This document shows positions 8,475-42,947 of a stretch of 64,000 nt of DNA, in pieces. The first letter of the stretch is position 1. The number at the start of each line of letters is the position of its first letter. Source of the DNA: Chthoniobacteraceae bacterium (GTDB lineage Bacteria > Verrucomicrobiota > Verrucomicrobiia > Chthoniobacterales > Chthoniobacteraceae). The notes beneath the pieces are model-generated. The model saw only the letters and a program-made list of their open reading frames with translations, made no database searches and was not told the origin of the DNA. The DNA is taken from the NCBI GenBank assembly GCA_028293625.1, contig JAQGOL010000031.1, forward strand, positions 1 to 64,000. Reading direction: 5' to 3'. A program made the translations under genes and the position numbers.

Positions 8475-9596
8475 ATGAAGAAGCAGTATCGCATTGCACT
8501 CTCGTTTGCGGGAGAAAAAAGAGATTTCGTAAGGCAGGTAGCCGAGATTCTCGCGGAGAGGTTCGGAAAGGAGTGCATTCTTTACGATAAATTCCATCAA
8601 GCAGCATTTGCGCGAAGTGATCTCGCCTTTCATCTACCTAAGCTATATTTTGAACAATCAGATCTGATAGTAGCCATTCTTTGCAATAACTACGAAAATA
8701 AAGAATGGTGCGGCCTTGAATGGAGCGCTATTTACGGTTTGCTTAAAAAACGCGAAGTAAAACGGGTTATGCTTTCGCGTTTTGACAGAGTAGACGGAGC
8801 AGGGTTATATGGACTCGGGGGATTCATTGATCTAGATGATATAACACCGATCGAAGCAGCCGCGCTTATTTGTGAACGCCTTGCAGACAATGAACGGTTA
8901 CCTGAAACTGAATCCATTAAAGTAGAGCCAAATTGGCCGGAAGTTGCCCCGTATTTCGACTGGTGCATAGCGGACCACAGTGCCGCGCAGCATGCATTTG
9001 CGCAGTTCGTCACACGGACATCTAAAGCTCGAATTCTTTCAATTTATGGCGCCAGCGGCACCGGTAAATCTCATTTAGCACAGCAGTTCCTCCGAAACGC
9101 ACCAAAAATCCCGAGCCTCCGCTATGGGCTGTTTGACTTCAAGGGTGCAGCAGACATGGACAGCCAATTACGCACTTTCGCGAATCAACTCAGCGTAGAC
9201 GTACCTAAGCGTGGGACGGGCCTTTCGAACCAACTCGCGGATATTTACGATTGCCTCAAAAAAACTATAAACCCCACACTGTTAATCTTCGATACTTTTG
9301 AGATGGCAGGCGAAGCCGACCAGTGGCTCAAAAATAATTTGTTATTGCCAATAGCACGTAATCCGTGGATGCGTGTGATTGTCCTTGGGCAAAAGGTGAT
9401 AATAACGCATGGACAAGCATGGGAGGATCTCAGCGCCATGCCTATCGAACTCCGTTTTCCTACCCCGGAGCATTGGTTTGAATTCGGGCAGCGTAATAAA
9501 CCTGAAGCTGACCTCGATTTTATACGTAAAGCTCATGCGCTTGGCGCAAACAGCAGCTCACTCGCTCAATTCCTTGGACCGTCTCATCCCCACTAG
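8475..9596 (+). CDS. TIR domain plus STAND-type P-loop ATPase
   Basis: This 373-residue protein begins with a TIR-type domain (residues about 5-136). It opens YRIALSFAGEKRDFV, has the WCGLEW block with a candidate catalytic Glu at 82, and ends with the GFIDLDD and ICERL segments. Such domains commonly hydrolyse NAD+ or make signalling nucleotides. A P-loop ATPase follows: Walker A GASGTGKS at 192-199 and Walker B LLIFDTFE near 269-276, as in NACHT/STAND switch proteins. The frame stops at 9596 after LGPSHPH, and a TPR-containing frame opens two bases later. I infer that the pair is one defence sensor-effector, with TPRs sensing, the STAND ATPase switching and TIR executing. No ribosome-binding site is obvious. 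Confidence 0.8.
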   Translation: MKKQYRIALSFAGEKRDFVRQVAEILAERFGKECILYDKFHQAAFARSDLAFHLPKLYFEQSDLIVAILCNNYENKEWCGLEWSAIYGLLKKREVKRVMLSRFDRVDGAGLYGLGGFIDLDDITPIEAAALICERLADNERLPETESIKVEPNWPEVAPYFDWCIADHSAAQHAFAQFVTRTSKARILSIYGASGTGKSHLAQQFLRNAPKIPSLRYGLFDFKGAADMDSQLRTFANQLSVDVPKRGTGLSNQLADIYDCLKKTINPTLLIFDTFEMAGEADQWLKNNLLLPIARNPWMRVIVLGQKVIITHGQAWEDLSAMPIELRFPTPEHWFEFGQRNKPEADLDFIRKAHALGANSSSLAQFLGPSHPH

Positions 9597-9598
9597 CC

Positions 9599-11518
9599 GT
9601 GAACTTCGCCGATCAACTCCACATTCTTAAAGGTGCTCAAGGTGATTCCGCGCTTCTCGTCCTCGCCACAGCGGAAATTGCTCACCACGCTCTTCCTAAA
9701 GCCGACCAAGCGCGAATTAAAGAAGCTCTGCTTGCTGCCGCAGTTCCGCATTGGTTTGACCGGTATATGCTTGCTGCACTGCTCGCAACTACCCCCGAAA
9801 ACTGCGACTACTTAATCCCATTTCTCCGAGCGCTTACGATTATCGAGCCCTTCCCTGCTCGTGGTGAGGATGCCCTGAACGTTCACGAGTCCGCGCGGCT
9901 CGCCCTTCGTGAACATCTGCGCACAACTGAGCCCGAACGCTGGAAGACACTTTCCGAACGAGCTAGAACTTATGTAAGTTGCAACGAAGAACCTCATGCT
10001 AAAATTGAAGCGCTTTACCATCTCTTCGCAACGGATCAACCAGCCGCGGCAATCGAGTGCCAAGCTCTTGATTTAAGATTCCATCACGAGGGACAGACAG
10101 AGACTATTCACGCCCTAGCCCTTTCGTTATCTGAATTAGCGAACGCCGGCTGGCTGACTGGTTCCGCTCAAGTAGAGGCATCGCTAGTTCCGCTTGAGGT
10201 TCGCGCTTCTCGCGATGAGGCCACGAAACTTGAGGATGCCATAAATGAGGTGTTAAAGATTGCCTGCGTTGCGTCGTACCCTTACGGGATCGTCCGCGCG
10301 AAATCGCTACTTGCTAACGTTCTGATAGGAAAAGGATATTCCGAGGCTGCCTTTAAGGCTATAGAAGAGGAGCTTGTCATATGTCATGCGGAAATCTTAA
10401 GTGAACCCTCCAATCTCGAATGGTTACGCATATTAAGCTTCGCATATTGCGCGCTAAGCGACATTTGCAAGTCGCGAGGCCGCAACGCCGACGCTCTTAC
10501 ATATTTACAGGAAGCTCTTATAGTAGGCCAGAAGCTCGCTGCAACTGAATCCACCGATACTTTTTGGCAGCAGCGCCATCTCGCCTCTATCTATTTAAAA
10601 CTTGGCAATCTCTGGGTAACTAAAGGGCTATTGGATAACGCTTGGGAAGCTTTTTGCAACTGCTCAAAAATCTTCACCAGCATAATGATTGAAGCTAGCG
10701 GCAATCAAAAATGGCAATTCGAACTTGCCTTAGTGAAATCGCACATCATCAACATATCCGCAAAGCGATTTAATCTAAGTGAGGCTCTAACGGTATCCCG
10801 ACAAGCGCTCATTAGCCTTGAAGAAGTCGCTTGCGCCGATGTTTCTAATACAGCTTTGCAAGCATCGCTTTCCGATGCGTATGCCAACGTTGGCGACACC
10901 CTTTTGCGACAAGGTTGCGATTATCAGAATAGGGGCTTCACAGAACACGCCAAGGAACTTCTCGATGAAGCGTTAATCACCATTCATAAATCCCTTTCTA
11001 TTTCCGCGCACTTGGCGACCCTAACGCCATCCAATATATTCCTGCAATATAGACTCGCTGTTGATCAGTCAAAACTCGCGGGCGTGCATGAGCTACAAGG
11101 GGCATTAGATGCCGCATTAACGAATTTCTATAAATCCCTTGCCATTTTTCAGCAGCTTTCAGCCACCGATCCGTCCAATATACACATGCTTCGCGAACTT
11201 GCTGCCACTCAATCGAAAATTTGCAATATTCACCGTCTGCACGGACGGTTTGACGAGGCACTATTAATTTGCTCAGAGTCGTTAGCTCATCTCAAATATC
11301 TAACAAACCACCACCCGGGCTATGTTATCTGCCAACGCGATCTGGCGATAGCTCATCTTAATCGTGCTCGAATTTATCGAGATATTCAATGCGGAGGAAA
11401 AGCTCAATCGAGTTTTCGTTGGTGTATAAAAACGATGGAAAAAGCAGTTTCTTTATCGCCGAAAGATACTGAATGGAGGAGAGATTTAGCGCTAATACGA
11501 AAAGAGTCGAAAAAATAA
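9599..11518 (+). CDS. TPR-rich C-terminal half of the STAND protein
   Basis: GTG at 9599 opens a 639-residue frame. The first 170 residues look like the winged-helix and helical segment that normally follows a STAND ATPase (for example ALLAAAVPHWFDRYMLAALL). From residue about 200 to the end there are degenerate tetratricopeptide repeats (SEAAFKAIEEEL, ADALTYLQEAL, LDAALTNFYKSLAIF, FDEALLICSESLAHL) interspersed with ATDPSN-like linkers. It begins two bases after the stop of the TIR-ATPase gene and in a different frame, without a visible ribosome-binding site. Either it is translated by coupling, or a single-base change has split one long TIR-STAND-TPR gene. The TPR part is the likely trigger sensor. 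Confidence 0.7.
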   Translation: MNFADQLHILKGAQGDSALLVLATAEIAHHALPKADQARIKEALLAAAVPHWFDRYMLAALLATTPENCDYLIPFLRALTIIEPFPARGEDALNVHESARLALREHLRTTEPERWKTLSERARTYVSCNEEPHAKIEALYHLFATDQPAAAIECQALDLRFHHEGQTETIHALALSLSELANAGWLTGSAQVEASLVPLEVRASRDEATKLEDAINEVLKIACVASYPYGIVRAKSLLANVLIGKGYSEAAFKAIEEELVICHAEILSEPSNLEWLRILSFAYCALSDICKSRGRNADALTYLQEALIVGQKLAATESTDTFWQQRHLASIYLKLGNLWVTKGLLDNAWEAFCNCSKIFTSIMIEASGNQKWQFELALVKSHIINISAKRFNLSEALTVSRQALISLEEVACADVSNTALQASLSDAYANVGDTLLRQGCDYQNRGFTEHAKELLDEALITIHKSLSISAHLATLTPSNIFLQYRLAVDQSKLAGVHELQGALDAALTNFYKSLAIFQQLSATDPSNIHMLRELAATQSKICNIHRLHGRFDEALLICSESLAHLKYLTNHHPGYVICQRDLAIAHLNRARIYRDIQCGGKAQSSFRWCIKTMEKAVSLSPKDTEWRRDLALIRKESKK

Positions 11519-12053: not shown

Positions 12054-13088
12054 ATGATCACTCACATCCGAATTCAAAATTTCCGCTCATTCTTGGAGGC
12101 TGAAGTCAATCTGCAGCCCTTCTCCTTGATTGTGGGGGCGAACGGGAGCGGGAAGAGCAATTTGCTGAAGTTTTTTGGCGCGATCTCTGGTGAACTTAGC
12201 GCGACGGATGATCTCGGAAATGATTTGGTGTTGAAGGTGGATCAATACCAAGGTCCGTTTAAGCTTAAAAAACCAAACTGGGTAAAACATCAAAATGCCC
12301 TTGAACAGCCCGTTGGATTTGAAGCACTAATAGATGGATCGGTGGTAACGAGCGCGACGGGAGTTGGGCCACATGCAATAACTTTTCGGAAGCCGTGGTT
12401 GCCCTGGCAAGGTAAGGGTCTCACCGTCTTCAACATTGATCCTGACAAGGTTTCTGCGGTGGAGACTGCCATTCCGTTTCCCTCAGTAACAGCCACCGGC
12501 GAGGGCACAGCGCAAGTCCTCGATTCCCTGAAAAATGGTGACCGCGAAGACCTTTTCGATAAAATCGAAGATAACTTTCGTCGATATGTTCCGGAGGTGG
12601 AAAAACTTAGTCTGCGAACAGTTGATAAGGGGAAAAAACAGATCCAAGTGCGAGAGAAGGGATTAAATGTATCAACGCTGGCAACCGAGTTATCCGAAGG
12701 TACCCGCTTGATTCTTTGCATTCTGACGATCCTTCATCAGGAAACTCCACCGCCAGTGATCCTGTTGGAAGACATTGACCGAGGCATGCACCCGCGACTG
12801 TTTGAGTATATTGCGCCTTTGATGCGTGATATCGCGAAACGGAACCAGATAAACATTCTTGCGACGACTCACAATCCCTATCTCGTGGATTGCTTCCAGG
12901 ACTACAAAGACTCCGTCATTATAGTGGAGAAGAAGGATGGTATAAGCACGCTAACCACGCTGAACAACAAACTTGAATGGCTTGATTATGAAACGGTGGA
13001 TCCGGAGGACATGCCGCTCGGCAGCCTCTGGTACAGTGGTCTAATCGGCGGCACTCCTAAAAATCTCAGCCGAGAAGTCCGGCATTGA
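12054..13088 (+). CDS. AAA ATPase of an OLD/PARIS-like defence pair
   Basis: This 344-residue ABC/SMC-like ATPase begins MITHIRIQNFRSFLEAEVNL, with Walker A GANGSGKSN at 28-36. It has a signature-like LSEGTRLILCIL segment near 222 and Walker B VILLEDIDRGMHP near 235-247, in which Asp follows the usual Glu position. The H-loop is ATTHNPYLVD near 269. This is the single-polypeptide ATPase type found in OLD nucleases, AbiL, PARIS (AriA) and Gabija. The next gene starts four bases after its stop and encodes a TOPRIM-like protein, the classic partner. Assignment to a particular named system is inference. It sits inside an island with other immune-type genes. Confidence 0.75.
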   Translation: MITHIRIQNFRSFLEAEVNLQPFSLIVGANGSGKSNLLKFFGAISGELSATDDLGNDLVLKVDQYQGPFKLKKPNWVKHQNALEQPVGFEALIDGSVVTSATGVGPHAITFRKPWLPWQGKGLTVFNIDPDKVSAVETAIPFPSVTATGEGTAQVLDSLKNGDREDLFDKIEDNFRRYVPEVEKLSLRTVDKGKKQIQVREKGLNVSTLATELSEGTRLILCILTILHQETPPPVILLEDIDRGMHPRLFEYIAPLMRDIAKRNQINILATTHNPYLVDCFQDYKDSVIIVEKKDGISTLTTLNNKLEWLDYETVDPEDMPLGSLWYSGLIGGTPKNLSREVRH

Positions 13089-13091
13089 TCC

Positions 13092-13754
13092 ATGGCTTAT
13101 CTGTATATCCTCTCGGAAGGCGACAAAGACGAACTCTTTTACCAGATCCTGGCGGAGCGAATAACGGGACAAACTTTCGATCAACCATCGAATTTCCGCC
13201 TGCGAAACGGATCTAATTGGAAGACGGCGCAGGCACAAGGGCGCCTTTTGCTAAATTGCGTCAAACACTGGAGCGCGCAGCAGGACATCGCCGTGATCCT
13301 CGCCATCGATAACGATCGCGCACCAGGCCATCCGGGATCCTCCCCTCATCCTCGCGCTTTAAAGGGCGCTGATTTAAGGAAAATGCCGCGATATCTTCTG
13401 CTTTTAGAGATGGTCACTAATGCTCTCGGCACCAACCGTACCGAATGGCCCGTGAAGGTAGCCGTGGCAATACCTGTGGAAATGATTGAAAGCTGGGTAT
13501 TGCAGCTGTGTAACCCAACTCGAGCAACGCTACCGCTTTTTGCTGAAAGTAACCAACGAAGCGCCCGCGACTATTACCAGGGAGCCCCCCCTCCGCAGCT
13601 AAAGGATTTATGCAAATTCGAGGCCGACGCGCTCGAGAAGCCGCTCGACGAGTATTTCTGGCACGCGGCAGAACAAGACCTGGACGCGGCCGCCGCGATG
13701 TCTCCGAGCCTGAAAATGTTTGTGGACGAATTGAAGCAGTGGACAGGAGAGTGA
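13092..13754 (+). CDS. TOPRIM-like partner of the AAA ATPase
   Basis: This 220-residue protein starts MAYLYILSEGDKDELFYQIL. The SEG-x-x-D/E pattern (Glu9) matches the first TOPRIM strand, and AIDNDRAP with Asp73 and Asp75 matches the metal-binding DxD. A further conserved-looking block, VAVAIPVEMIESWVLQL, carries two Glu residues and resembles DUF4276/DUF4435-type proteins. Such proteins are effectors: nucleases, or tRNA nucleases in the PARIS case. The start lies four bases after the ATPase stop, so the two are translated together. I cannot separate the PARIS, AbiL and OLD-like groups by reading alone. Confidence 0.65.
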   Translation: MAYLYILSEGDKDELFYQILAERITGQTFDQPSNFRLRNGSNWKTAQAQGRLLLNCVKHWSAQQDIAVILAIDNDRAPGHPGSSPHPRALKGADLRKMPRYLLLLEMVTNALGTNRTEWPVKVAVAIPVEMIESWVLQLCNPTRATLPLFAESNQRSARDYYQGAPPPQLKDLCKFEADALEKPLDEYFWHAAEQDLDAAAAMSPSLKMFVDELKQWTGE

Positions 13755-15720: not shown

Positions 15721-18700
15721 TTAAGGCTTCTTGCCAGTAATGCCCCACTCCAATGCATTCATCGTCGCCTTGTCCGGCGGGAGGGAACAGATCTGGACCC
15801 AATGCAGTTGGTTGAGAAAAAGAAGATGTGGAGGAACTTCGTGCACACCTGGCAAAAGCACTGGGATAAGGGGAATTTTCCGTTTCACACATTCGTGCAG
15901 GAGGATCCGCAATTCGGCTTCCTGCCAATCTCCCAACCCTTGAGGTCCTAAGCAGATGACAGCGGCTTTAACTTTCGGAATGGCGAGTTGGATCACGTCC
16001 TGAAACCAAGTTCCCGGCGGGATTTCATCCTCATCGAGCCACGGCTTTAACCCGCGGTTTTTTAGCGCCTCGTTCATGGTACGCATAGCCGGCTTATCCT
16101 GTGAATTGTGAGCAAGGAAAACGTCGTGTGTGTGGATAGCGGTGGAAGTAGACATTGCGGGCGGACTTTTGCGACACGGAATCAAGGGGCGGGGTTCGGG
16201 CGAGGTATTCTTGGCAGACTCAATCAGGCGCAGAAAGTGCACGCGGCTAGAACTATCACCCGCAATAATAGTATGGCCATCTGGTGCAATCGCGCACGAC
16301 TGGAAGTCTGCCTCGGCATTGAAAACTGCGAGGCACTGCCCGCTCTCCAGATCCCACACCCGCAGCGTCGCGTCATCAGATGCCGAAATAGCCCGGCGCC
16401 CATCCGCACTCACCGCCACGCCATTGACCGAACCAGCATGGTCGATAAGGATGCGCAGGCACTGACCGCTCTCCAAGTCCCACACCCGCAGCGTCGCGTC
16501 ATAAGACGCCGAGATAGCCCGGCACCCATCGGCACTCACTGCCACGCCCTTAACCGAACCACCATGGCCTTTAAGGACACGCAGGCACTGCCCGCTCTCC
16601 AGATCCCACACCCGCAGCGTCTCGTCATAAGACGCGGAGATAGCCCGGCGCCCATCCGCACTCACCGCCACGCCCTTAACCGAACCAGCATGGCCTTTAA
16701 GGATGCGAAGGTTCTGCCCGCTTTCCAGATCCCGCAGGGTCATGTCCTTAGACGCCGAGACGGCCCGGGGACCAACGGAACTCACTGCCACGCCATTGAC
16801 CCAGAAAGAATAATTTTCAAGGGTGCGCAGACAACGCCCGGTCTTCAGATCCCACACCCGCAGCGTCTCATCATCAGACGCCGAGACGACCCAACGCCCG
16901 TCGGCACTTACCGCCAAGTCCTTAACTGAGCCAGCATGACTTTCAAAGGTGCGCACGTAATAACCGGGGTCCAGATCCCACACCCGCAGCGTCGCGTCAT
17001 CAGACGCCGAGACGGCTCGACGCCCATCGGCACTCACCGCCACGCCCTTAACCGAATCACCATGGCCTTTAAGGATGCGCAGGCAGTGCCCGCTTTCCAG
17101 ATCCCACACCCGCAGCGTCGCGTCATCAGATGCCGAGATGGCCCACCGCCCATCGGCACTCACTGCCACACCATTGACCGAGCCGACATGACCTTCAAGG
17201 ATGCGTAGGCAGTGCCTACTCTCCAAGTCCCACACCCGCAGTGTCTCGTCAGAAGACGCTGAGATGGTCCGGCGCCCATCCGCACTTACAGCCACGCCGT
17301 TAACCCAAAAAGAATGACCTTTAAGGATGCGCAGGCACTGCCCGGTCTCCAGATCCCACACCCGCAGGGTCTCATCATCAGACGCCGAAACGGCCCGATG
17401 CCCGTCGGCACTCATCGCCACGCCATTAACCCAAAAGGAGTGACCTTCAAGGGTATACAGGCACCGCCCGCTCTCTAGATCCCACACCCGCAGCGTCTCG
17501 TCATCGGACGCCGAGACGGCCCGGCGCCCATCCGCACTTACAGCCACGCCGTTAACCCAAAAGGAATGACCTTTAAGGATGCGCAGGCACCGCCCGGTCT
17601 CCAGATCCCACACCCGCAGCGTCTCATCATCAGACGCCGAAACGGCCCGGCGCCCATCCGCACTTACAGCCACGCCATTGACCGAGCCGACATGACCTTC
17701 AAGGATGTAAATCAGACCTCCCCCTGGAGAGGTCAGGTTCGAATGCAACGGACAAAGCCAATTGGCACCCCTCCACTCTTGGGCTTTTGCAACGAGCCCC
17801 TGAATCCTCGGCTTCTCACTGCCAAGTAATCTGCCTACCAAGTGTCCCGCCAATTGCTTGGGATTGTGCGCCAACATATGGGCTGAAAGCCGAATAGCGC
17901 TTTGCACCAAGCGCGCATCTTCATCTTCCTTTAGCCAATCAAAATCCGCAAGGAGCGCGTCAACATTCGTAGCTCCGAACTTGGCTTGGAGCCAATCGAA
18001 ATTAAAGAGGAGCGTGGAAAATTCCACCTCCCAGCCAGCCTGCTTCAAATGCCATGGCGCCCAACGCCACGCATATGCGTTTGGCAGTTGCAGAAAATCG
18101 CCCCATGCCTCCAGCAAACGGCTGTGAGTTAACTGTGAGTGCGGGAGCTGGCCCGCCAAGTATACTCGCATCACGTCGTGCAGGCTCACCATGTGCGATT
18201 TTAAATTCAATTCAATTAGGGAATGATTGGCCAGCAACTGCGCACACTTTGTTGTTTCCACAAAGCTGAGCCCCCAGAACTGCTGGAGTGTGCTGAGCGG
18301 GATTTCGGTATCTTCCGGGAAAATGGCGAGCTCGCAAAACCGCTGGCGATTTTCGAGCTTCAAGTGGCTCGTGCTCAGTTGCACAGTCGTTGCGATCGCC
18401 TCGTCGCGCTGCCGGCTATCCTCGCGATCAAAAGCGATGACCCCGCGCTCCGTGAACGCGGCATTCACATATTCGAGAGCGCCTTCTAGACTTTCGCCAT
18501 ACTCCATGCTGGTCCAGATGGCACCGGCGGCCAACTTGAGTAGCAATGGCCATTCGCCGAGCCTTTTTGCCAGTTGTTCAAAGGGCGTCGCGTCGGCCGG
18601 CGGTTCCAGCAATCGCCCCGTGAGCATTTTGACCGCTTCCTCTGCGGTCATTTCATCGACTCGAATGCGCCTGGCATTGGGCGCCACATGGAAGATTCGC

Positions 18701-19176
18701 GTGGTAATCAGCCGCTGGGAAGCACTTCCACCCCGGAAAAAGGGCTTCAGATCCGCGTCTTCCCAGACATCATCGATCACGAGCAGGCAGCGCAGGGAAT
18801 CGAGCTTTTCTCCAAGCTTGATACCCGCCTGGGTTTCGTCTTGGAACGTGCGTCGATCTCCAGAAACCGCCTCGTAAAGTTTAGTGAGTTCGCGTTGGAT
18901 GGATGCCGGGCTCGCGTGGTGACCGAGCGTGGCCCAGAGAATGCCGTCGGGGAACGCGGCCCTTACATTCGGGTCGTGGCAGAGGGCGGTGGCCAAGGTA
19001 GTCTTGCCGTAGCCGCCCGTGCCATGGAGAGCGGTGGTAATCGAAACAGGGGTGAGATCTTCATCCCCCAGAAGCAGCTTCAGAAGCGGCTCGTATTCGT
19101 CGGGCCGCGCAACAAACCCAGTTGGAAAATCGGGAGCAAGAAACGGAGTACGGGAGGAATAGTGCGGGGCGGCCAC
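15721..19176 (-). CDS. NLR-like protein: NB-ARC, WD40 array, C-terminal TIR
   Basis: This 1151-residue protein starts at a GTG (19176); no better start is seen nearby. Residues about 20-340 form an NB-ARC-type STAND ATPase. It has Walker A GTGGYGKTT (52-60), Walker B LLVIDDVW (131-138), a sensor-like LITTR (156-160), a GLPL-like EWPLLLKLAAG (208-218) and an MHD-like LHDVMRVYL (332-340). A helical spacer follows. From residue about 490 to 985 there are eleven 42-residue WD40 repeats (GH-x(4)-GVAVSADGRR-x-x-SAS-x-D-x-TLRVWDLE) and a degenerate twelfth. Residues about 1016-1151 are a TIR domain (HDVFLAHNSQDK, LDEDEIPPG, GDWQEAEL with a candidate catalytic Glu near 1086). The inverted order relative to plant NLRs is typical of bacterial antiphage NLR-like proteins. 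Oligomerisation on sensing and NAD+ depletion would be the expected mode (inference). Confidence 0.85.
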   Translation of the reverse strand: MAAPHYSSRTPFLAPDFPTGFVARPDEYEPLLKLLLGDEDLTPVSITTALHGTGGYGKTTLATALCHDPNVRAAFPDGILWATLGHHASPASIQRELTKLYEAVSGDRRTFQDETQAGIKLGEKLDSLRCLLVIDDVWEDADLKPFFRGGSASQRLITTRIFHVAPNARRIRVDEMTAEEAVKMLTGRLLEPPADATPFEQLAKRLGEWPLLLKLAAGAIWTSMEYGESLEGALEYVNAAFTERGVIAFDREDSRQRDEAIATTVQLSTSHLKLENRQRFCELAIFPEDTEIPLSTLQQFWGLSFVETTKCAQLLANHSLIELNLKSHMVSLHDVMRVYLAGQLPHSQLTHSRLLEAWGDFLQLPNAYAWRWAPWHLKQAGWEVEFSTLLFNFDWLQAKFGATNVDALLADFDWLKEDEDARLVQSAIRLSAHMLAHNPKQLAGHLVGRLLGSEKPRIQGLVAKAQEWRGANWLCPLHSNLTSPGGGLIYILEGHVGSVNGVAVSADGRRAVSASDDETLRVWDLETGRCLRILKGHSFWVNGVAVSADGRRAVSASDDETLRVWDLESGRCLYTLEGHSFWVNGVAMSADGHRAVSASDDETLRVWDLETGQCLRILKGHSFWVNGVAVSADGRRTISASSDETLRVWDLESRHCLRILEGHVGSVNGVAVSADGRWAISASDDATLRVWDLESGHCLRILKGHGDSVKGVAVSADGRRAVSASDDATLRVWDLDPGYYVRTFESHAGSVKDLAVSADGRWVVSASDDETLRVWDLKTGRCLRTLENYSFWVNGVAVSSVGPRAVSASKDMTLRDLESGQNLRILKGHAGSVKGVAVSADGRRAISASYDETLRVWDLESGQCLRVLKGHGGSVKGVAVSADGCRAISASYDATLRVWDLESGQCLRILIDHAGSVNGVAVSADGRRAISASDDATLRVWDLESGQCLAVFNAEADFQSCAIAPDGHTIIAGDSSSRVHFLRLIESAKNTSPEPRPLIPCRKSPPAMSTSTAIHTHDVFLAHNSQDKPAMRTMNEALKNRGLKPWLDEDEIPPGTWFQDVIQLAIPKVKAAVICLGPQGLGDWQEAELRILLHECVKRKIPLIPVLLPGVHEVPPHLLFLNQLHWVQICSLPPDKATMNALEWGITGKKP
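16230..17706 (-). repeat. Tandem 126-bp WD40-coding repeats, about 11.5 units
   Basis: On the minus strand the sequence coding for the WD40 propellers is built from 126-bp units that are nearly identical at DNA level over long blocks. One example is the segment for DETLRVWDLE, repeated with single-base changes. Two unit classes alternate in their first strand, GHSFWVNGVAV and GHAGSVKGVAV/GHVGSVNGVAV. The eighth unit lacks two codons (VW). Such high identity points to recent unit duplication or gene conversion. Confidence 0.85.
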
Positions 19177-37490: not shown

Positions 37491-40400
37491 ATGAACAAGA
37501 ATACCCCGGCCGCTCAGGTGATTGCGGAGACGAGCAAAAAAATCCGCGGCTTTCTTTACGAACTCGCCGAGGGAATCACCAATTACCGGAGTCTCCACAG
37601 TCTTACGGAGCAGATTGAGCACCAATACCACGGGCGGGTGATCATCGAGCTAATTCAGAACGCCCATGACGCTCTTTCGCTTGCAGGTGGTCTGGAAACG
37701 GGGCGCATTGAAATAGTCCTAAAGCGGGACGATGGCGAATTTGGAACACTTTACGTAGCAAATGATGGGAAATGTTTTTCTCAGTCGAATTTTGAAAGTC
37801 TGTCCCAACTGGGCCAGAGCGACAAAAACCCGGAGAACTCGATTGGGAACAAGGGGATTGGTTTTCGAAGTGTGCTGGAAATCACCTCTTCCCCAGAGAT
37901 CTACTCGCGTTTAGCGGCTGATAGCGACGTCTTTGACGGTTTCTGCTTCAAGTTTTCCCCCTCTTTTATTGAGCAGCTTGCCGCTCCCATCTTTGCACTG
38001 CTGAGGGGCGAACCTTGCGGAGATTTGGTTGACTGGGACGAATCATTGCGGAAAAAATTCCGGGATACGGTCGGCGAGAAAGGCGAATCTTGGCTGCGGC
38101 GAGAACTCCAGTATCTTTCACCATATCTGCTTCCATTTCCTATTGAGCCCAACGGCGGCGGCGCGATGGTGTCAGAATTTGAAAAGCGAGGCTTTGCCAC
38201 AGTTGTTCGGCTCCCGTTGAAGGCCCCCAGTGCAAGTCAGGTTTTGCAGGAGAAGCTCCATGAACTTGAGGGCACCACCCTTGTTTTTCTGGATAAAGCA
38301 AAGCATCTCATAGTTGACGATGGAACCAATCGTCGTGAGTTCCTTAGACAGTCTTTTACGCGTCACTCAAGCCAGCTCGGCAGGACTGAAGTAATAGTCA
38401 CTGGAAACTCCAGCAGCACGGCGGAACGCTACTGGCTCTGGACCCGCAATATTGTGATCTCCAACTCCCCTGACACAGTCAAGGAAGCTTTGAAGAATCT
38501 ACCCGGCAAATGGCCTCAGCTTCAGCAAACTGCTATCACCCTCGGTGTTCGTCTGGCCGATGCGCCGCAAACTGGCGTTTTGAGCATCTTTCTTCCAACG
38601 TTGTTGAAGTCCGGATGCGGTGCAAACATCAATGCACCGTTCTTTGGCGACATGAGCCGAACGTTAATCGACTTCAAAAACAGCTACAATGATTTCCTGC
38701 TTAAGGAAGCGTCCATGCTTGCTCTGCAACTCATTGCAGAAGAGCTTGCCGGCAATGGTCTCGATGAAGCTCGAGTCATTGTAGATCTGCTCGCACCTGC
38801 AGGCAGCGACAATGAAGCATGCTCGCGATGGCAGAGTGCGTGTCACGAGGCAGCCACAGAGACGAGGTTTGCAATCGGTGACGTCGCTTGCTTTTTTTCA
38901 GATCAAGGATGGCGGACGCTGGCGGAAACGTCATTGATCCCGGATGCGCGAGGTTCTAGCGTCATTACACGAAACGCACTTCGGGAACACGCCACTTTTG
39001 CAGGCATTGTATCGGGTCTTGATTCAAGGGCCCAATCGATCTGCGAGTTGGCCAAAACTTATGGCATTTCGGCATTTCCGATTAAATCCGAACTTGCCGA
39101 CACCGTCGAAGCCTTGGCGCAATCACTTCGTGTTCAAAAAGAAACCGATTGGAATGGATTTTGGACAGATGCTGAGAGCTTGTTCGGTGGCGATAGCACC
39201 CCACTTCTTACAAAGCTAGTGTTGCTCGGAAACGATGAGCAGCTTTACGCCAGCAGCGAAACATGCGCCGTCTTTTTCAGCCCTCGCCAAGGCGTCGTCG
39301 ATAATGATGAAATCAGCCCCGGCGCGGATTCAGTGCCGGCGACCCTCAAAGGACATATTGCTTTCCTTAGCGAGCGAATCACAGTTTCCGATGAAAGGGG
39401 CAGCCGACCTAAAAGTCCAATCCGGAGATTTCTTGAGGGAAAATTGGTGAATCGTTTCCACGTCGAAGACATTTTTCGCTCTGTTCTCCTAAAGCAAACA
39501 CCGCAGCTACCAATTGCCCTCGACGATCCGCTCGCCCCGCTTTGTAACGACATCCTTCTATGGGGGCTTCGGTTGATGTCACATTTGGTGGAACGTGGAA
39601 AAGGCGACAAGTCGTTTCGGCTGCTCATATCTTTGCCGGTGCCTTGCCAAAGTGGCTGGTTAAAACTTGACGAGTCGTCTTTTGGGGCGGGCTGGCCCGG
39701 CACGATGGGAGACGTTCTCCTGAAATTTCTTACAAACCTTCCGCGACCACAAAGTAAGGATGCGCTAGCACGACTCTTACTGCCGCCTAGCGATCCGCGT
39801 TGGCAACAGGCGGGACTGGCGCATCAAAAGCTCATGCATCTTGCCGGTGTCTTCGATGGCTTGCGACTGTCCATGGTCGCCTCGAAGGATTGGAATAGCA
39901 CCTTCCAGGGTGGCTGGGGAACCCTCCTGCTTCCCGCCACCCCACCCCCAGGTGTAGGCGGGTCATTGTGGGCTAGTTACCGCAAGTACATCGAAACCGC
40001 AGTAAAACCATATTATCAAAATTGGTTTTCTTATGAGGTTCAAACACTATACACATTCTCTGGTTTTGCTCTGTGTGACGCATTGGACGATGAAGCGCGT
40101 TTGGACTTGATGAGTCTTCTCCTCGGCAGTCTGGGCGCGTGGGGAAAGTCATGGAGTATCCTCTCCTTCAAGAAGAAAGAAGGTTATAGCGATTCTCCTA
40201 CGGCGGAGTCACCCCTCGTCTTTTTTTTGCGAACTCACGCGTGGCTTGGTTTGACCAACGGTGGACGTCTCGAATGGTTTCTTCCCAGAGAGCGTTGGCA
40301 CGTTCCTGCTCAGGTTTTGGGAGGAAACGCATGGCAGTTTGACCACTTAAAACCGCTACCGACTGCAATCGCATACCAACTCGATAGTAATCTTCCATTA

Positions 40401-42947
40401 ATGGAGGTGCTCCGGTCATTGGACATGCCACGTTACGAGACCGAGATCCCATCGGCCAATACACGGCTTCTTGACGATCTGGCTATAGCTGTGCAAAAGC
40501 TGGAGACCACTAAAAGAAACTTTTACGTGTTTCTGGGACAAGTTCGCTCCGCTTGGAAAAATTTTCATCCCGAACAGGACAGCCCGTTTCCGTCGTTGCT
40601 AATCGTCGGCCATGCCGGAACCTCACTAACAGCAGAACTTCCAAGCGCAGATCGGCCCATTTATCTTCCAAATTCATCGAAGTCGTTCGCCGCCGCCGAG
40701 CAGTTCGATCTACCTGTGCTTGCCATCGACATCAACGATGCGCGGCGGCTCGCTGCCAAATTTACTGAAGCTTACGGAGCGGCCGTTCGTACTACATCGA
40801 CACTTGAGTTGGTTCCGTTGGTAGGACGCACGCCATGGAGCGGTTTGGGAGAAGGTCTACTATACGAGAGTGAGTTTGGACATTTGGTGCCTTTAATCCT
40901 GACGCTAGCTGCATTTACCGGGGGCCAACGCCTTTCATCCAAGCGCTTTCAAATACAAATGGCAACATTCCGTGCTGCAAAGGTTGCGTGGGTTGCAGAT
41001 TTGCGCGCCGCTCTATACGACGGCGAAAATCAATTAGCGGCCCCTGCCACAGAAGCACTTTGGTTAAAAGATAAGAGCGTGCTATTGGTGACTGAGAAGT
41101 GTCGCATCGAACCGGCTCTTTTAGGAGAGGCACTCTCCCACCTGATTGACCAAGATGACCTGGAGATTCCCATTAAACTACTCCTCCAGGGATTCACCAA
41201 TTTGGAACCCGAAAACGACGATATAGTGCGCGCCTTCCGTCGCGTAAAGCTTCTACCGGAACACCTGCAGGAAGTCCGAGAGCACTGGAATGGTGATCTC
41301 AACCAGATTCTCCGGATGATTATCCCTCTCCTTACCCTCCTGCGTCCGGATGCTGACTTGAGCAGAATGATGGAGTCGAAGACATCTTTGGAACTGGATC
41401 ATTTTTTAAATGAACTCCACAACTCCCGCTTTAGTAGCTCTGATATTCTGAAGCTCTGCCGAGCTTCCGCCGATATGTTTGATCTTGGGCAGAACGCTTG
41501 GCGCCAATTTGGCGAGTCTCTGCAACTGGGGAAGTGGAATGCGCTCATGACAGAGCGAGGTGAAACGGTTTTGCTCAACCGGGAAGCAGCTACCGCCTTC
41601 CGGCTCCATCTCGGCACGGCTCTATCGCCGCTTCGTAGCCTTCTTGCCACAATCGCTCACAGGAACGTACCGAACCAAGGCTTTAAGACGCTATACCGCG
41701 ACTTGGAAGCGATGAGCTGCCCTCCTGATTTTGAGAGGGAGCTTTGGGAAGTGGATTTCCAGCGCACTATGGTAACGACATTACCCTATTTCGATCGCTG
41801 GGGGGCTTCTCCGATCGAACTCGAGGCGATTCGGATGGCCACGTGCCGCATAGACCTTGAGGAAGGGTTGCGGCAGGCAGGAATAGACATTTCATCCGAT
41901 CCACTGGAAACAGCACGAGTTAACTTGGACAAACTTCGAGGTGCGCTTCACCGTTTACAACAAATCGGCCTCGCCTGGGCCCTGGCTACACATCGCGCAA
42001 ATGCATCCGCATGGGAGTGTCGCGTGGATCAATTCTTGACGAGTCATACTTCCATACTCAACTCACAAAGCTATCTCAGCAAATGGTCGGATGAAGAAGT
42101 TTTCGCTATGCTTCAGAATCTGCCTCAAGAGGAAGGTGATGAGGACTTTTGGAACGGCCTGTCGCAATCGCAATGCCTCAGAGAATTGACAGCAACGCTT
42201 GGCTTGTCCGATGAAATGCTTGAGTATGCACACGAAAAACTCCGGGCATTTAAGGAAGACGTCCGCCGTAAGGGGCGATTGGTAGAAATTGGAGGCGAAG
42301 AATTCGATGCATCCGAAGATAATTTTACGCAGCTTTTTGAGCATATCCGCAAGGTGCTTCCCGACGAGCAAATGGACAACATGTCCACAATCGATCTGCG
42401 CATCCCGAGTATCCCCTCAAGTATAACTCCGACGACAAGTTCAGCCGGACGAAGCGGATCCCCGAGTGCGTCCATTAAGATCAAACGGTCGTCAAAAGCG
42501 ATGGAAGCCCTCGTGGGTCTCACCGGCGAAATTCATGCATATCGCATGCTGAAAAAGCATTACAACGCGGGACCAGAGAATTGGATTTCCGGAAACGGCA
42601 ACATTGTATTTCCAGAAAACCGCCCGGATGATGGTCGGGGCTGTGATTTTGAGATCGCGTTCAAGGATCGAACCTATTTTGTCGAAGTCAAGGCAAGTGA
42701 GAGTGAGGCCGAATGCTTCATTCTTGGCTCATCAGAAATGCGCTTGGCCATGGAGGTAGCCCGAAGGGCGCGGCCCAATCGGAAAAATGTGTTCATTATC
42801 CTCCATATAACTCGGGCTCTTTCGGATCAACCTGCGTTCAGACTGCTACCGAATCCGTATGATCCACGCTATCAGCCTCTTTTCCTTATGGACGGAGCAG
42901 ATGTCCGCGTTCGATACCGAACCGAAGCTGGGATTGCTCCGCTTTAG
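37491..42947 (+). CDS. Giant sacsin-like HATPase / DUF3883 protein
   Basis: This is 1818 residues. The N-terminus carries a GHKL-type ATP-binding domain: N-box IIELIQNAHDA (Glu53, Asn57, Asp60), G1 NDGKCF (91-96) and G2 IGNKGIGFRS (118-127). This is the sacsin/Hsp90-like arrangement. About 1550 helical residues follow without clear motifs. Near residues 1670-1800 there is a DUF3883 ('NO VEIN' C-terminal) domain. Its CDFEIAFKDRTYFVEVKA block has the D...E-x-K pattern of PD-(D/E)xK nucleases. Proteins with this architecture occur in bacterial defence contexts. The last four codons and the stop (IAPL-stop) come from the terminal repeat of the IS element at 42935, so the native C-terminus is probably shortened. 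The gene has no partner on its strand. Confidence 0.8.
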   Translation: MNKNTPAAQVIAETSKKIRGFLYELAEGITNYRSLHSLTEQIEHQYHGRVIIELIQNAHDALSLAGGLETGRIEIVLKRDDGEFGTLYVANDGKCFSQSNFESLSQLGQSDKNPENSIGNKGIGFRSVLEITSSPEIYSRLAADSDVFDGFCFKFSPSFIEQLAAPIFALLRGEPCGDLVDWDESLRKKFRDTVGEKGESWLRRELQYLSPYLLPFPIEPNGGGAMVSEFEKRGFATVVRLPLKAPSASQVLQEKLHELEGTTLVFLDKAKHLIVDDGTNRREFLRQSFTRHSSQLGRTEVIVTGNSSSTAERYWLWTRNIVISNSPDTVKEALKNLPGKWPQLQQTAITLGVRLADAPQTGVLSIFLPTLLKSGCGANINAPFFGDMSRTLIDFKNSYNDFLLKEASMLALQLIAEELAGNGLDEARVIVDLLAPAGSDNEACSRWQSACHEAATETRFAIGDVACFFSDQGWRTLAETSLIPDARGSSVITRNALREHATFAGIVSGLDSRAQSICELAKTYGISAFPIKSELADTVEALAQSLRVQKETDWNGFWTDAESLFGGDSTPLLTKLVLLGNDEQLYASSETCAVFFSPRQGVVDNDEISPGADSVPATLKGHIAFLSERITVSDERGSRPKSPIRRFLEGKLVNRFHVEDIFRSVLLKQTPQLPIALDDPLAPLCNDILLWGLRLMSHLVERGKGDKSFRLLISLPVPCQSGWLKLDESSFGAGWPGTMGDVLLKFLTNLPRPQSKDALARLLLPPSDPRWQQAGLAHQKLMHLAGVFDGLRLSMVASKDWNSTFQGGWGTLLLPATPPPGVGGSLWASYRKYIETAVKPYYQNWFSYEVQTLYTFSGFALCDALDDEARLDLMSLLLGSLGAWGKSWSILSFKKKEGYSDSPTAESPLVFFLRTHAWLGLTNGGRLEWFLPRERWHVPAQVLGGNAWQFDHLKPLPTAIAYQLDSNLPLMEVLRSLDMPRYETEIPSANTRLLDDLAIAVQKLETTKRNFYVFLGQVRSAWKNFHPEQDSPFPSLLIVGHAGTSLTAELPSADRPIYLPNSSKSFAAAEQFDLPVLAIDINDARRLAAKFTEAYGAAVRTTSTLELVPLVGRTPWSGLGEGLLYESEFGHLVPLILTLAAFTGGQRLSSKRFQIQMATFRAAKVAWVADLRAALYDGENQLAAPATEALWLKDKSVLLVTEKCRIEPALLGEALSHLIDQDDLEIPIKLLLQGFTNLEPENDDIVRAFRRVKLLPEHLQEVREHWNGDLNQILRMIIPLLTLLRPDADLSRMMESKTSLELDHFLNELHNSRFSSSDILKLCRASADMFDLGQNAWRQFGESLQLGKWNALMTERGETVLLNREAATAFRLHLGTALSPLRSLLATIAHRNVPNQGFKTLYRDLEAMSCPPDFERELWEVDFQRTMVTTLPYFDRWGASPIELEAIRMATCRIDLEEGLRQAGIDISSDPLETARVNLDKLRGALHRLQQIGLAWALATHRANASAWECRVDQFLTSHTSILNSQSYLSKWSDEEVFAMLQNLPQEEGDEDFWNGLSQSQCLRELTATLGLSDEMLEYAHEKLRAFKEDVRRKGRLVEIGGEEFDASEDNFTQLFEHIRKVLPDEQMDNMSTIDLRIPSIPSSITPTTSSAGRSGSPSASIKIKRSSKAMEALVGLTGEIHAYRMLKKHYNAGPENWISGNGNIVFPENRPDDGRGCDFEIAFKDRTYFVEVKASESEAECFILGSSEMRLAMEVARRARPNRKNVFIILHITRALSDQPAFRLLPNPYDPRYQPLFLMDGADVRVRYRTEAGIAPL

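What the first reader, a model, noticed from the sequence alone, without database searches (positions are those of the whole stretch)
15721..19176. Bacterial NLR-like protein: NB-ARC, 11-12 near-identical WD40 units, C-terminal TIR
The chain combines the three parts of an innate immune receptor: a STAND switch, a repeat sensor and an NADase-type effector. The WD40 units are almost identical at DNA level, which is unusual for old propellers. It suggests rapid repeat-number change or gene conversion, as in fungal NLR-like proteins under diversifying selection.
Basis: partly seen in the sequence, partly recalled or inferred. Interest (0 to 1): 0.75.

Follow-up and report, generated by a model that had tools for sequence, protein, structure and literature searches.

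The report
Bacterial Apaf-1-like receptor with tail TIR
A bacterium carries one gene for a self-contained alarm protein built like the human cell-death protein Apaf-1, but with its probable NAD-destroying TIR domain at the tail instead of the front; the kind is known, the arrangement is unusual, and this copy is not diversifying fast the way its relatives are.

Summary
Observation mostly right. 15721-19176 (-) is one intact 1151-aa gene: NB-ARC and helical HD2 alignable to Apaf-1 (aa 49-439), 11 WD40 units of 126 bp plus a degenerate closing unit, and a C-terminal TIR with the NADase WxxxE glutamate (E1088). 'Near-identical at DNA level' is overstated: units are 70-91% identical (mean 80.5%), unit 8 lacks the V-W of its WD motif, and synonymous divergence (pS 0.35) shows the array is not recent. 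It is still far above the genome's other WD40 proteins (33-42% nt).

The kind is described: recently amplified (WRAP-like) propellers on STAND ATPases with TIR partners. In 11 of 11 comparably repetitive relatives, the four WD40 positions under diversifying selection in fungal HET-D/E show pN well above pS (1.5-6.8); the window gene does not (0.63, 0.47-0.79). Repeat-number change is real in the family (two Acaryochloris plasmid copies, 13 versus 1 unit), unshown here. What is unusual is effector position: relatives carry TIR, DUF4062 or CHAT at the N-terminus; none seen has a C-terminal TIR.

Most likely an accessory, horizontally acquired all-in-one anti-phage receptor that depletes NAD+. 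New variant of a known kind.

The parts
15721..19176 (-). Whole gene: NB-ARC - HD2 - double WD40 propeller - TIR, 1151 aa, GTG start
   Evidence: single gene, no close partner on the same strand
18142..19119 (-). NB-ARC switch with HD1 and winged helix (aa 20-345): Walker A GTGGYGKTT 52-60, Walker B LLVIDDVW 131-138, LITTR 156-160, EWPLLL 208-213, MHD-like LHDVMR 332-337
17767..18141 (-). Helical HD2-like arm (aa 346-470), alignable to Apaf-1
16321..17700 (-). 11 WD40 units of 126 bp (aa 493-952)
16840..17718 (-). First propeller, 7 blades (aa 487-779)
   Evidence: AlphaFold model pLDDT mostly above 90; matches 7-bladed WRAP-T 7big over 286 residues, rmsd 0.9, Z 50.4
16699..16818 (-). Unit 8, damaged: RVWDL reads RDL (6-base in-frame deletion), 40 aa; first unit of the second propeller
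   Evidence: model confidence dips at aa 779-790
16225..16320 (-). Degenerate closing unit (aa 953-984), homologous to the closing unit of Acaryochloris L032/L033
15733..16137 (-). C-terminal TIR domain (aa 1014-1148), joined by a low-confidence linker of about 30 aa that contains Met1008
15913..15915 (-). Codon of E1088, the WxxxE glutamate (W1084+4)
   Evidence: AbTIR E208 in PMC11374754

Best explanation
A self-contained STAND (AP-ATPase/NB-ARC) immune receptor of the Apaf-1 type. Resting state: NB-ARC bound to ADP, held closed by the helical arm and the two WD40 propellers. A ligand, most likely a phage protein, binds the face of the propellers; nucleotide exchange opens the switch; the protein forms a ring; the tail TIRs, on a flexible linker, are brought together and cleave NAD+, stopping growth before phage release. 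Shown here by sequence and model: domain make-up, intact switch motifs, intact WxxxE, one 7-bladed propeller and a second set of 5 units, purifying selection outside the hot positions, absence from related genomes, and a defence-gene neighbourhood. Inferred: ligand, ring, NADase activity, abortive infection. Because the TIRs sit beyond the propellers instead of at the N-terminal hub, their clustering must be geometrically different from that in Apaf-1 or plant TIR resistosomes.
For: NB-ARC and HD2 align with Apaf-1 and AfsR. Best fold match of the whole model is full-length Apaf-1, E 1e-63 (global TM only 0.40, so domain by domain). TIR matches known NADase TIRs and keeps the Glu. Relatives carry TIR, TIR-like DUF4062, CHAT or effector-associated domains joined to the same NB-ARC-WD40 core. 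Gene absent from 3 congeners and from 388 genomes of the phylum; closest NB-ARC relatives are in Chloroflexota and Proteobacteria, which points to horizontal gain. Neighbours: TIR-AAA plus TPR pair 8475-11518, AAA_21 ATPase pair 12054-13754, Tiamat (TmtA) protein 37491-42947, E 5e-253. Non-hot positions pN 0.13 against pS 0.35 and no stop in 1151 codons: a maintained gene.
Against: No assay. Blade total is 12, while relatives peak at 14 and 16, or 7-8 for one propeller, and unit 8 is damaged, so the second propeller may be imperfect. No relative with the same domain order was found, so the C-terminal TIR rests on one gene. TIR model confidence is low (pLDDT 51).
Confidence: 0.66

Rival explanations
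1. Contracted or decaying sensor. The array has lost about two units from a 14-blade ancestor and one unit is damaged, so the second propeller no longer forms properly and the receptor is insensitive, kept in frame only by chance.
For: 12 units against peaks at 14 and 16; unit 8 damaged; complete collapse to one unit occurs in Acaryochloris L033; Podospora alleles below ten repeats are non-reactive (PMC12222747).
Against: Purifying selection on non-hot positions, pN/pS about 0.37 between units, and no stop or frameshift; several other relatives lie at 11-12 units.
Confidence: 0.14
2. The TIR makes a signal (a cyclic ADP-ribose isomer) for a separate effector, or acts as a scaffold, rather than draining NAD+.
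For: Signal-making is known for bacterial TIRs (PMC10022894, listed); W1084, the position linked to 2'cADPR production in AbTIR (PMC11374754), is present.
Against: No ThsA-like or other receptor gene was seen among the neighbours I scanned; the gene is not in an operon.
Confidence: 0.12
3. Two products from one gene: translation restarting at Met1008 makes a free TIR that works in trans with the NB-ARC-WD40 chain.
For: MSTSTAIHTHDVFLAHNSQDKP looks like the start of a stand-alone TIR; its closest relatives in a Calothrix plasmid are separate small TIR genes.
Against: No ribosome-binding site is evident before the ATG; the frame is continuous.
Confidence: 0.06
4. Not defence: a regulator of development or transcription, like AfsR, which shares the NB-ARC core.
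For: AfsR is among the closest solved relatives of the NB-ARC part.
Against: No DNA-binding domain; a TIR in its place; patchy distribution.
Confidence: 0.04

Closest known systems
Apaf-1 (and Dark)
   Same: NB-ARC, winged helix, HD2 and two WD40 propellers in the same order; best solved relative by sequence and fold
   Different: No CARD; TIR at the C-terminus; WD40 units alike, not diverged; 7 + 5 units against 7 + 8 (the latter from general knowledge)
WRAP domain STAND proteins of cyanobacteria (Npun_R6612; PMC9218822, PMC6805158)
   Same: STAND ATPase followed by recently amplified WD40 blades, TIR partner, proposed role in bacterial innate immunity; first propeller superposes on designed WRAP-T at 0.9 A
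   Different: WRAP has 14 blades with almost no synonymous change and its TIR is on a separate STAND gene; here 12 units, pS 0.35, TIR on the same chain
Acaryochloris 'Moss Beach' CHAT-NB-ARC-WD40 genes with adjacent CHAT-TIR gene (L032, L033)
   Same: Homologous NB-ARC, HD2, WD40 units and closing unit
   Different: CHAT at the N-terminus, TIR in a neighbouring gene and not closely related; hot positions hypervariable (pN/pS 6.8)
Rhizobium leguminosarum WP_166478692.1 (L029)
   Same: TIR, NB-ARC, HD2 and WD40 in one chain; 34% identity over aa 1-489
   Different: TIR at the N-terminus, WD40 units diverged (27% median)
Podospora HET-D/HET-E (HNWD) fungal NLRs (PMC1805685, PMC12222747)
   Same: 11 similar WD40 units after a STAND switch; two-propeller arrangement; TIR-related effector
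   Different: NACHT, N-terminal HET; units over 80% identical; four positions under diversifying selection, absent here
Calothrix NIES-4101 WD40-Roc-COR-TIR protein BAZ36750.1 and neighbouring TIR genes (L118)
   Same: Same TIR subfamily, up to 49.6% identity, and a C-terminal TIR on a WD40 protein
   Different: GTPase (Roc) instead of NB-ARC, WD40 first

Membership tests
STAND AP-ATPase (NB-ARC) | NB-ARC profile with Walker A, Walker B, TTR sensor, GLPL-like and MHD-like motifs | tested here: met
   65.6 bits over cut-off 23.5; motifs at aa 52-60, 131-138, 156-160, 208-213, 332-337; key residues invariant across relatives
Apaf-1-type receptor | NB-ARC, HD2 and two WD40 propellers in this order | tested here: met
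   the second propeller, of 5 units, is modelled less surely
Apaf-1-type receptor | Effector or adaptor domain N-terminal to NB-ARC | tested here: not met
   conserved region starts at about aa 13; in-frame TGA three codons before the start
Recently amplified (WRAP-like) propeller | Median blade identity above 60% (criterion of PMC9218822) | tested here: met
   median 71-76% by two ways of cutting units
Recently amplified (WRAP-like) propeller | Very recent amplification: few synonymous changes | tested here: not met
   pS 0.35 between units
Fungal HNWD-type diversifying NLR | pN above pS at the four top-face WD40 positions | tested here: not met
   0.63 (0.47-0.79); 11 of 11 comparable relatives above 1
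Fungal HNWD-type diversifying NLR | Repeat number differs between close alleles | not tested
   no close relative held; shown for the Acaryochloris pair
TIR NADase | TIR domain with WxxxE glutamate | tested here: met
TIR NADase | Cleaves NAD+ | not testable with these tools
   assay needed
Antiviral STAND (Avs) / bacterial NLR with N-terminal effector | N-terminal effector, C-terminal sensor | tested here: not met
   effector at the C-terminus
Antiviral STAND (Avs) / bacterial NLR with N-terminal effector | Protects against phage | not testable with these tools
   assay needed
DGR-diversified STAND sensor (PMC10907252) | Reverse transcriptase in the genome | tested here: not met
   no RVT_1 match in 6.83 Mb, 96% complete

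The most novel reading that the evidence does not exclude
Bacterial NB-ARC-WD40 receptors are a widespread class in which the same four top-face residues per blade are driven to diversify as in fungal HET-D/E, and the window gene is a fixed-specificity branch of it, with the effector moved to the tail, guarding against one conserved phage or cell target.
Probability: 0.3. Interest if true: 0.6.

Novelty: new variant of a known kind. Interest (0 to 1): 0.42.

Why it matters
It gives a one-gene test of whether a TIR placed beyond the sensor can be switched on by an Apaf-1-like ring. The comparison made to judge it also shows, by a count that can be repeated, that bacterial relatives diversify at the same four WD40 positions as fungal allorecognition receptors, which makes the question of what bacterial WD40 sensors recognise directly testable by swapping those residues between alleles in laboratory strains.

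Tried and rejected
Scan of genome contigs with the NB-ARC part alone found no relative; an alignment with plasmid relatives did. No NB-ARC relative in phage records. Fusion of the downstream TIR gene of Acaryochloris was considered as source of the tail TIR and rejected: that TIR is not closely related. Diversity-generating retroelement rejected. Exchange with sister genes rejected: next best WD40 hits in the genome are 32% identical or less. The single-sequence TIR model was too poor for a fold search (pLDDT 51). Non-STAND WD40 controls were too few to say whether hypervariability is peculiar to STAND proteins (kinase 1.66, 0.84-2.21; trypsin 0.68, 0.45-0.94; two diverged kinases near 1). Synteny with congeners could not be read: the flanking gene tested is absent from them too. 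No tRNA marks an island border. The second VIA look was filled by the first propeller and says nothing on the NB-ARC or TIR.

Full report
What is there. The stretch 15721-19176 on the minus strand is a single open frame of 1151 codons from a GTG. Three codons upstream is an in-frame TGA (sequence), so the protein begins about 20 residues before its NB-ARC domain. NB-ARC scores 65.6 bits (cut-off 23.5) and, with the helical region behind it, aligns to human Apaf-1 residues 151-559 (E 1e-14) and to AfsR (E 4e-14). The switch motifs are present. Then come 11 WD40 units in a 126-base tandem array, a degenerate closing unit, a linker of about 30 residues and a TIR_2 domain (67.9 bits).

How alike are the units. 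Pairwise DNA identity runs from 70 to 91% (mean 80.5%), protein identity from 60 to 90% (mean 75%). That is far above ordinary WD40 proteins of the same genome, whose median DNA identity between units is 33-42%, and places the gene fifth of 63 relatives. It is not 'almost identical': synonymous differences per site are 0.35, against 0.08 in the Acaryochloris gene L032. Unit 8 has lost V-W of its RVWDL by a 6-base deletion. Every canonical unit is closer to its own neighbours (best 74-90%) than to any unit of the relatives held (at most 62%), so the array was amplified or kept homogeneous within this lineage, but not lately.

Structure. AlphaFold2 with 25 relatives gives mean pLDDT 81. Residues 487-779 form a 7-bladed propeller that superposes on the designed 7-bladed WRAP-T (286 residues, 0.9 A, Z 50). 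Units 8-11 and the closing unit follow after a dip in confidence at 779-790, so the second propeller has five sequence units. The best whole-chain match is full-length Apaf-1 (E 1e-63, but TM-score 0.40, so the domains match and their relative placing does not). The linker and the TIR are of low confidence; a single-sequence TIR model was no better. In relatives the total span corresponds to about 14 units (24 of 62), 16, or 7-8: two propellers or one. The window's 12 is off those peaks but shared by several. Active fungal HET-D/E alleles have 11 similar units plus three cryptic ones, modelled as 7 + 7 (PMC12222747); only one cryptic unit could be recognised here.

The TIR. It aligns to solved bacterial TIRs including AbTIR and the filament-forming CRISPR-associated Cat1. 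The glutamate of the WxxxE motif on which NADase activity of most bacterial TIRs depends (AbTIR W204 and E208; PMC11374754) corresponds to W1084 and E1088. E1088 is invariant in an alignment of ten TIRs; E1086 is not. The closest relatives found, up to 49.6% identity, are on a Calothrix plasmid, as small TIR genes and as the C-terminal domain of a WD40-Roc-COR-TIR protein. This TIR subfamily thus occurs as a movable module, also at C-termini. NADase activity is inferred, not shown.

Relatives and the place of the effector. The NB-ARC part has no good match in 56 close genomes (best E 1.9e-4) or in 388 genomes of the phylum. Relatives at 28-48% identity lie in Chloroflexota, Actinomycetota, Proteobacteria, Cyanobacteria and Acidobacteria. 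Of 62 N-terminal regions scanned, 11 match TIR_2, 4 DUF4062 (a TIR-like NADase according to the preprint PMC13174449), 3 ThsB_TIR, and one each CHAT, EAD10, EAD2 and trypsin (some counts overlap). C-terminal tails are short; the three longest carry no TIR, and the window TIR finds no other match in the loci held at that stage. So in the family the effector is normally N-terminal, and the window gene carries it at the other end. Some contigs are cut short and the sample is limited; an unseen example elsewhere is quite possible.

Is the sensor diversifying. In Podospora four codons of each repeat (7, 9, 25, 27), flanking conserved codons 8 and 26, are under positive selection (PMC1805685). By spacing and consensus these are positions 6, 8, 24 and 26 of my unit, flanking V7 and D25; the mapping is mine. 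Taking those positions in advance, pN at them divided by pS over the unit is 1.48 to 6.82 in all 11 relatives with median unit identity of 64% or more, each with a bootstrap lower bound above 1.2; in 25 genes position 6 is among the four most variable in 17 and position 24 in 13. The window gene gives 0.63 (0.47-0.79), and its most variable positions are 4, 37 and 41. Limits: units are not independent, no correction for multiple hits or for recombination, and only ten window units. I found no report of this pattern in bacteria in the papers read; that is not proof that none exists.

Repeat number. Two plasmids of one Acaryochloris strain carry copies of a relative with 94% identical sequence up to the array and 91% after it; one has 13 units, the other one unit plus the closing unit. 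The family can thus gain or lose nearly the whole sensor. For the window gene no close relative is at hand. The genome has no reverse transcriptase match, so no DGR, and no second gene with similar units.

Surroundings. The gene stands alone: the gene downstream runs towards it, and the one upstream has no recognised family. Nearby on the plus strand are a TIR-AAA protein with a TPR protein 2 bases behind it (8475-11518), an AAA_21 ATPase with a small partner (12054-13754) and, further off, a Tiamat (TmtA) protein (37491-42947). This is what a defence island looks like, and it supports a defence role by association.

Verdict. A real, intact, unusual member of a described class: Apaf-1-like STAND receptors with amplified WD40 sensors and TIR effectors in bacteria (Dunin-Horkawicz 2014 as cited in PMC9218822; PMC7159879). 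The effector at the C-terminus makes it a new variant.

Noticed in passing
window 8475-11518 (+): TIR_2-AAA_22 protein followed 2 bases later by a TPR protein: a second, two-gene TIR-STAND-TPR system in the same island.
   Followed up: partly
window 12054-13754 (+): AAA_21 ATPase resembling HEC-01A, AriA and MADS3 proteins, with a 220-aa partner that has at most a very weak TOPRIM match.
   Followed up: partly
window 37491-42947 (+): 1818-aa protein matching TmtA (Tiamat) over its full length, E 5e-253.
   Followed up: partly
L032 3983-7129 and L033 3257-5617: Plasmid paralogues of one Acaryochloris strain, flanks 94% and 91% identical, 13 versus 1 WD40 units; in L032 the CHAT part is separated from the rest by a frame change.
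   Followed up: yes
L031, L032, L037, L039, L052, L062, L064, L073, L089, L097, L108: Bacterial NB-ARC-WD40 proteins show pN above pS at the four WD40 positions known from fungal HET-D/E.
   Followed up: partly
L118 5451-12240: Calothrix plasmid cluster of WD40-Roc-COR-TIR, two tandem-TIR genes and another TIR gene.
   Followed up: partly
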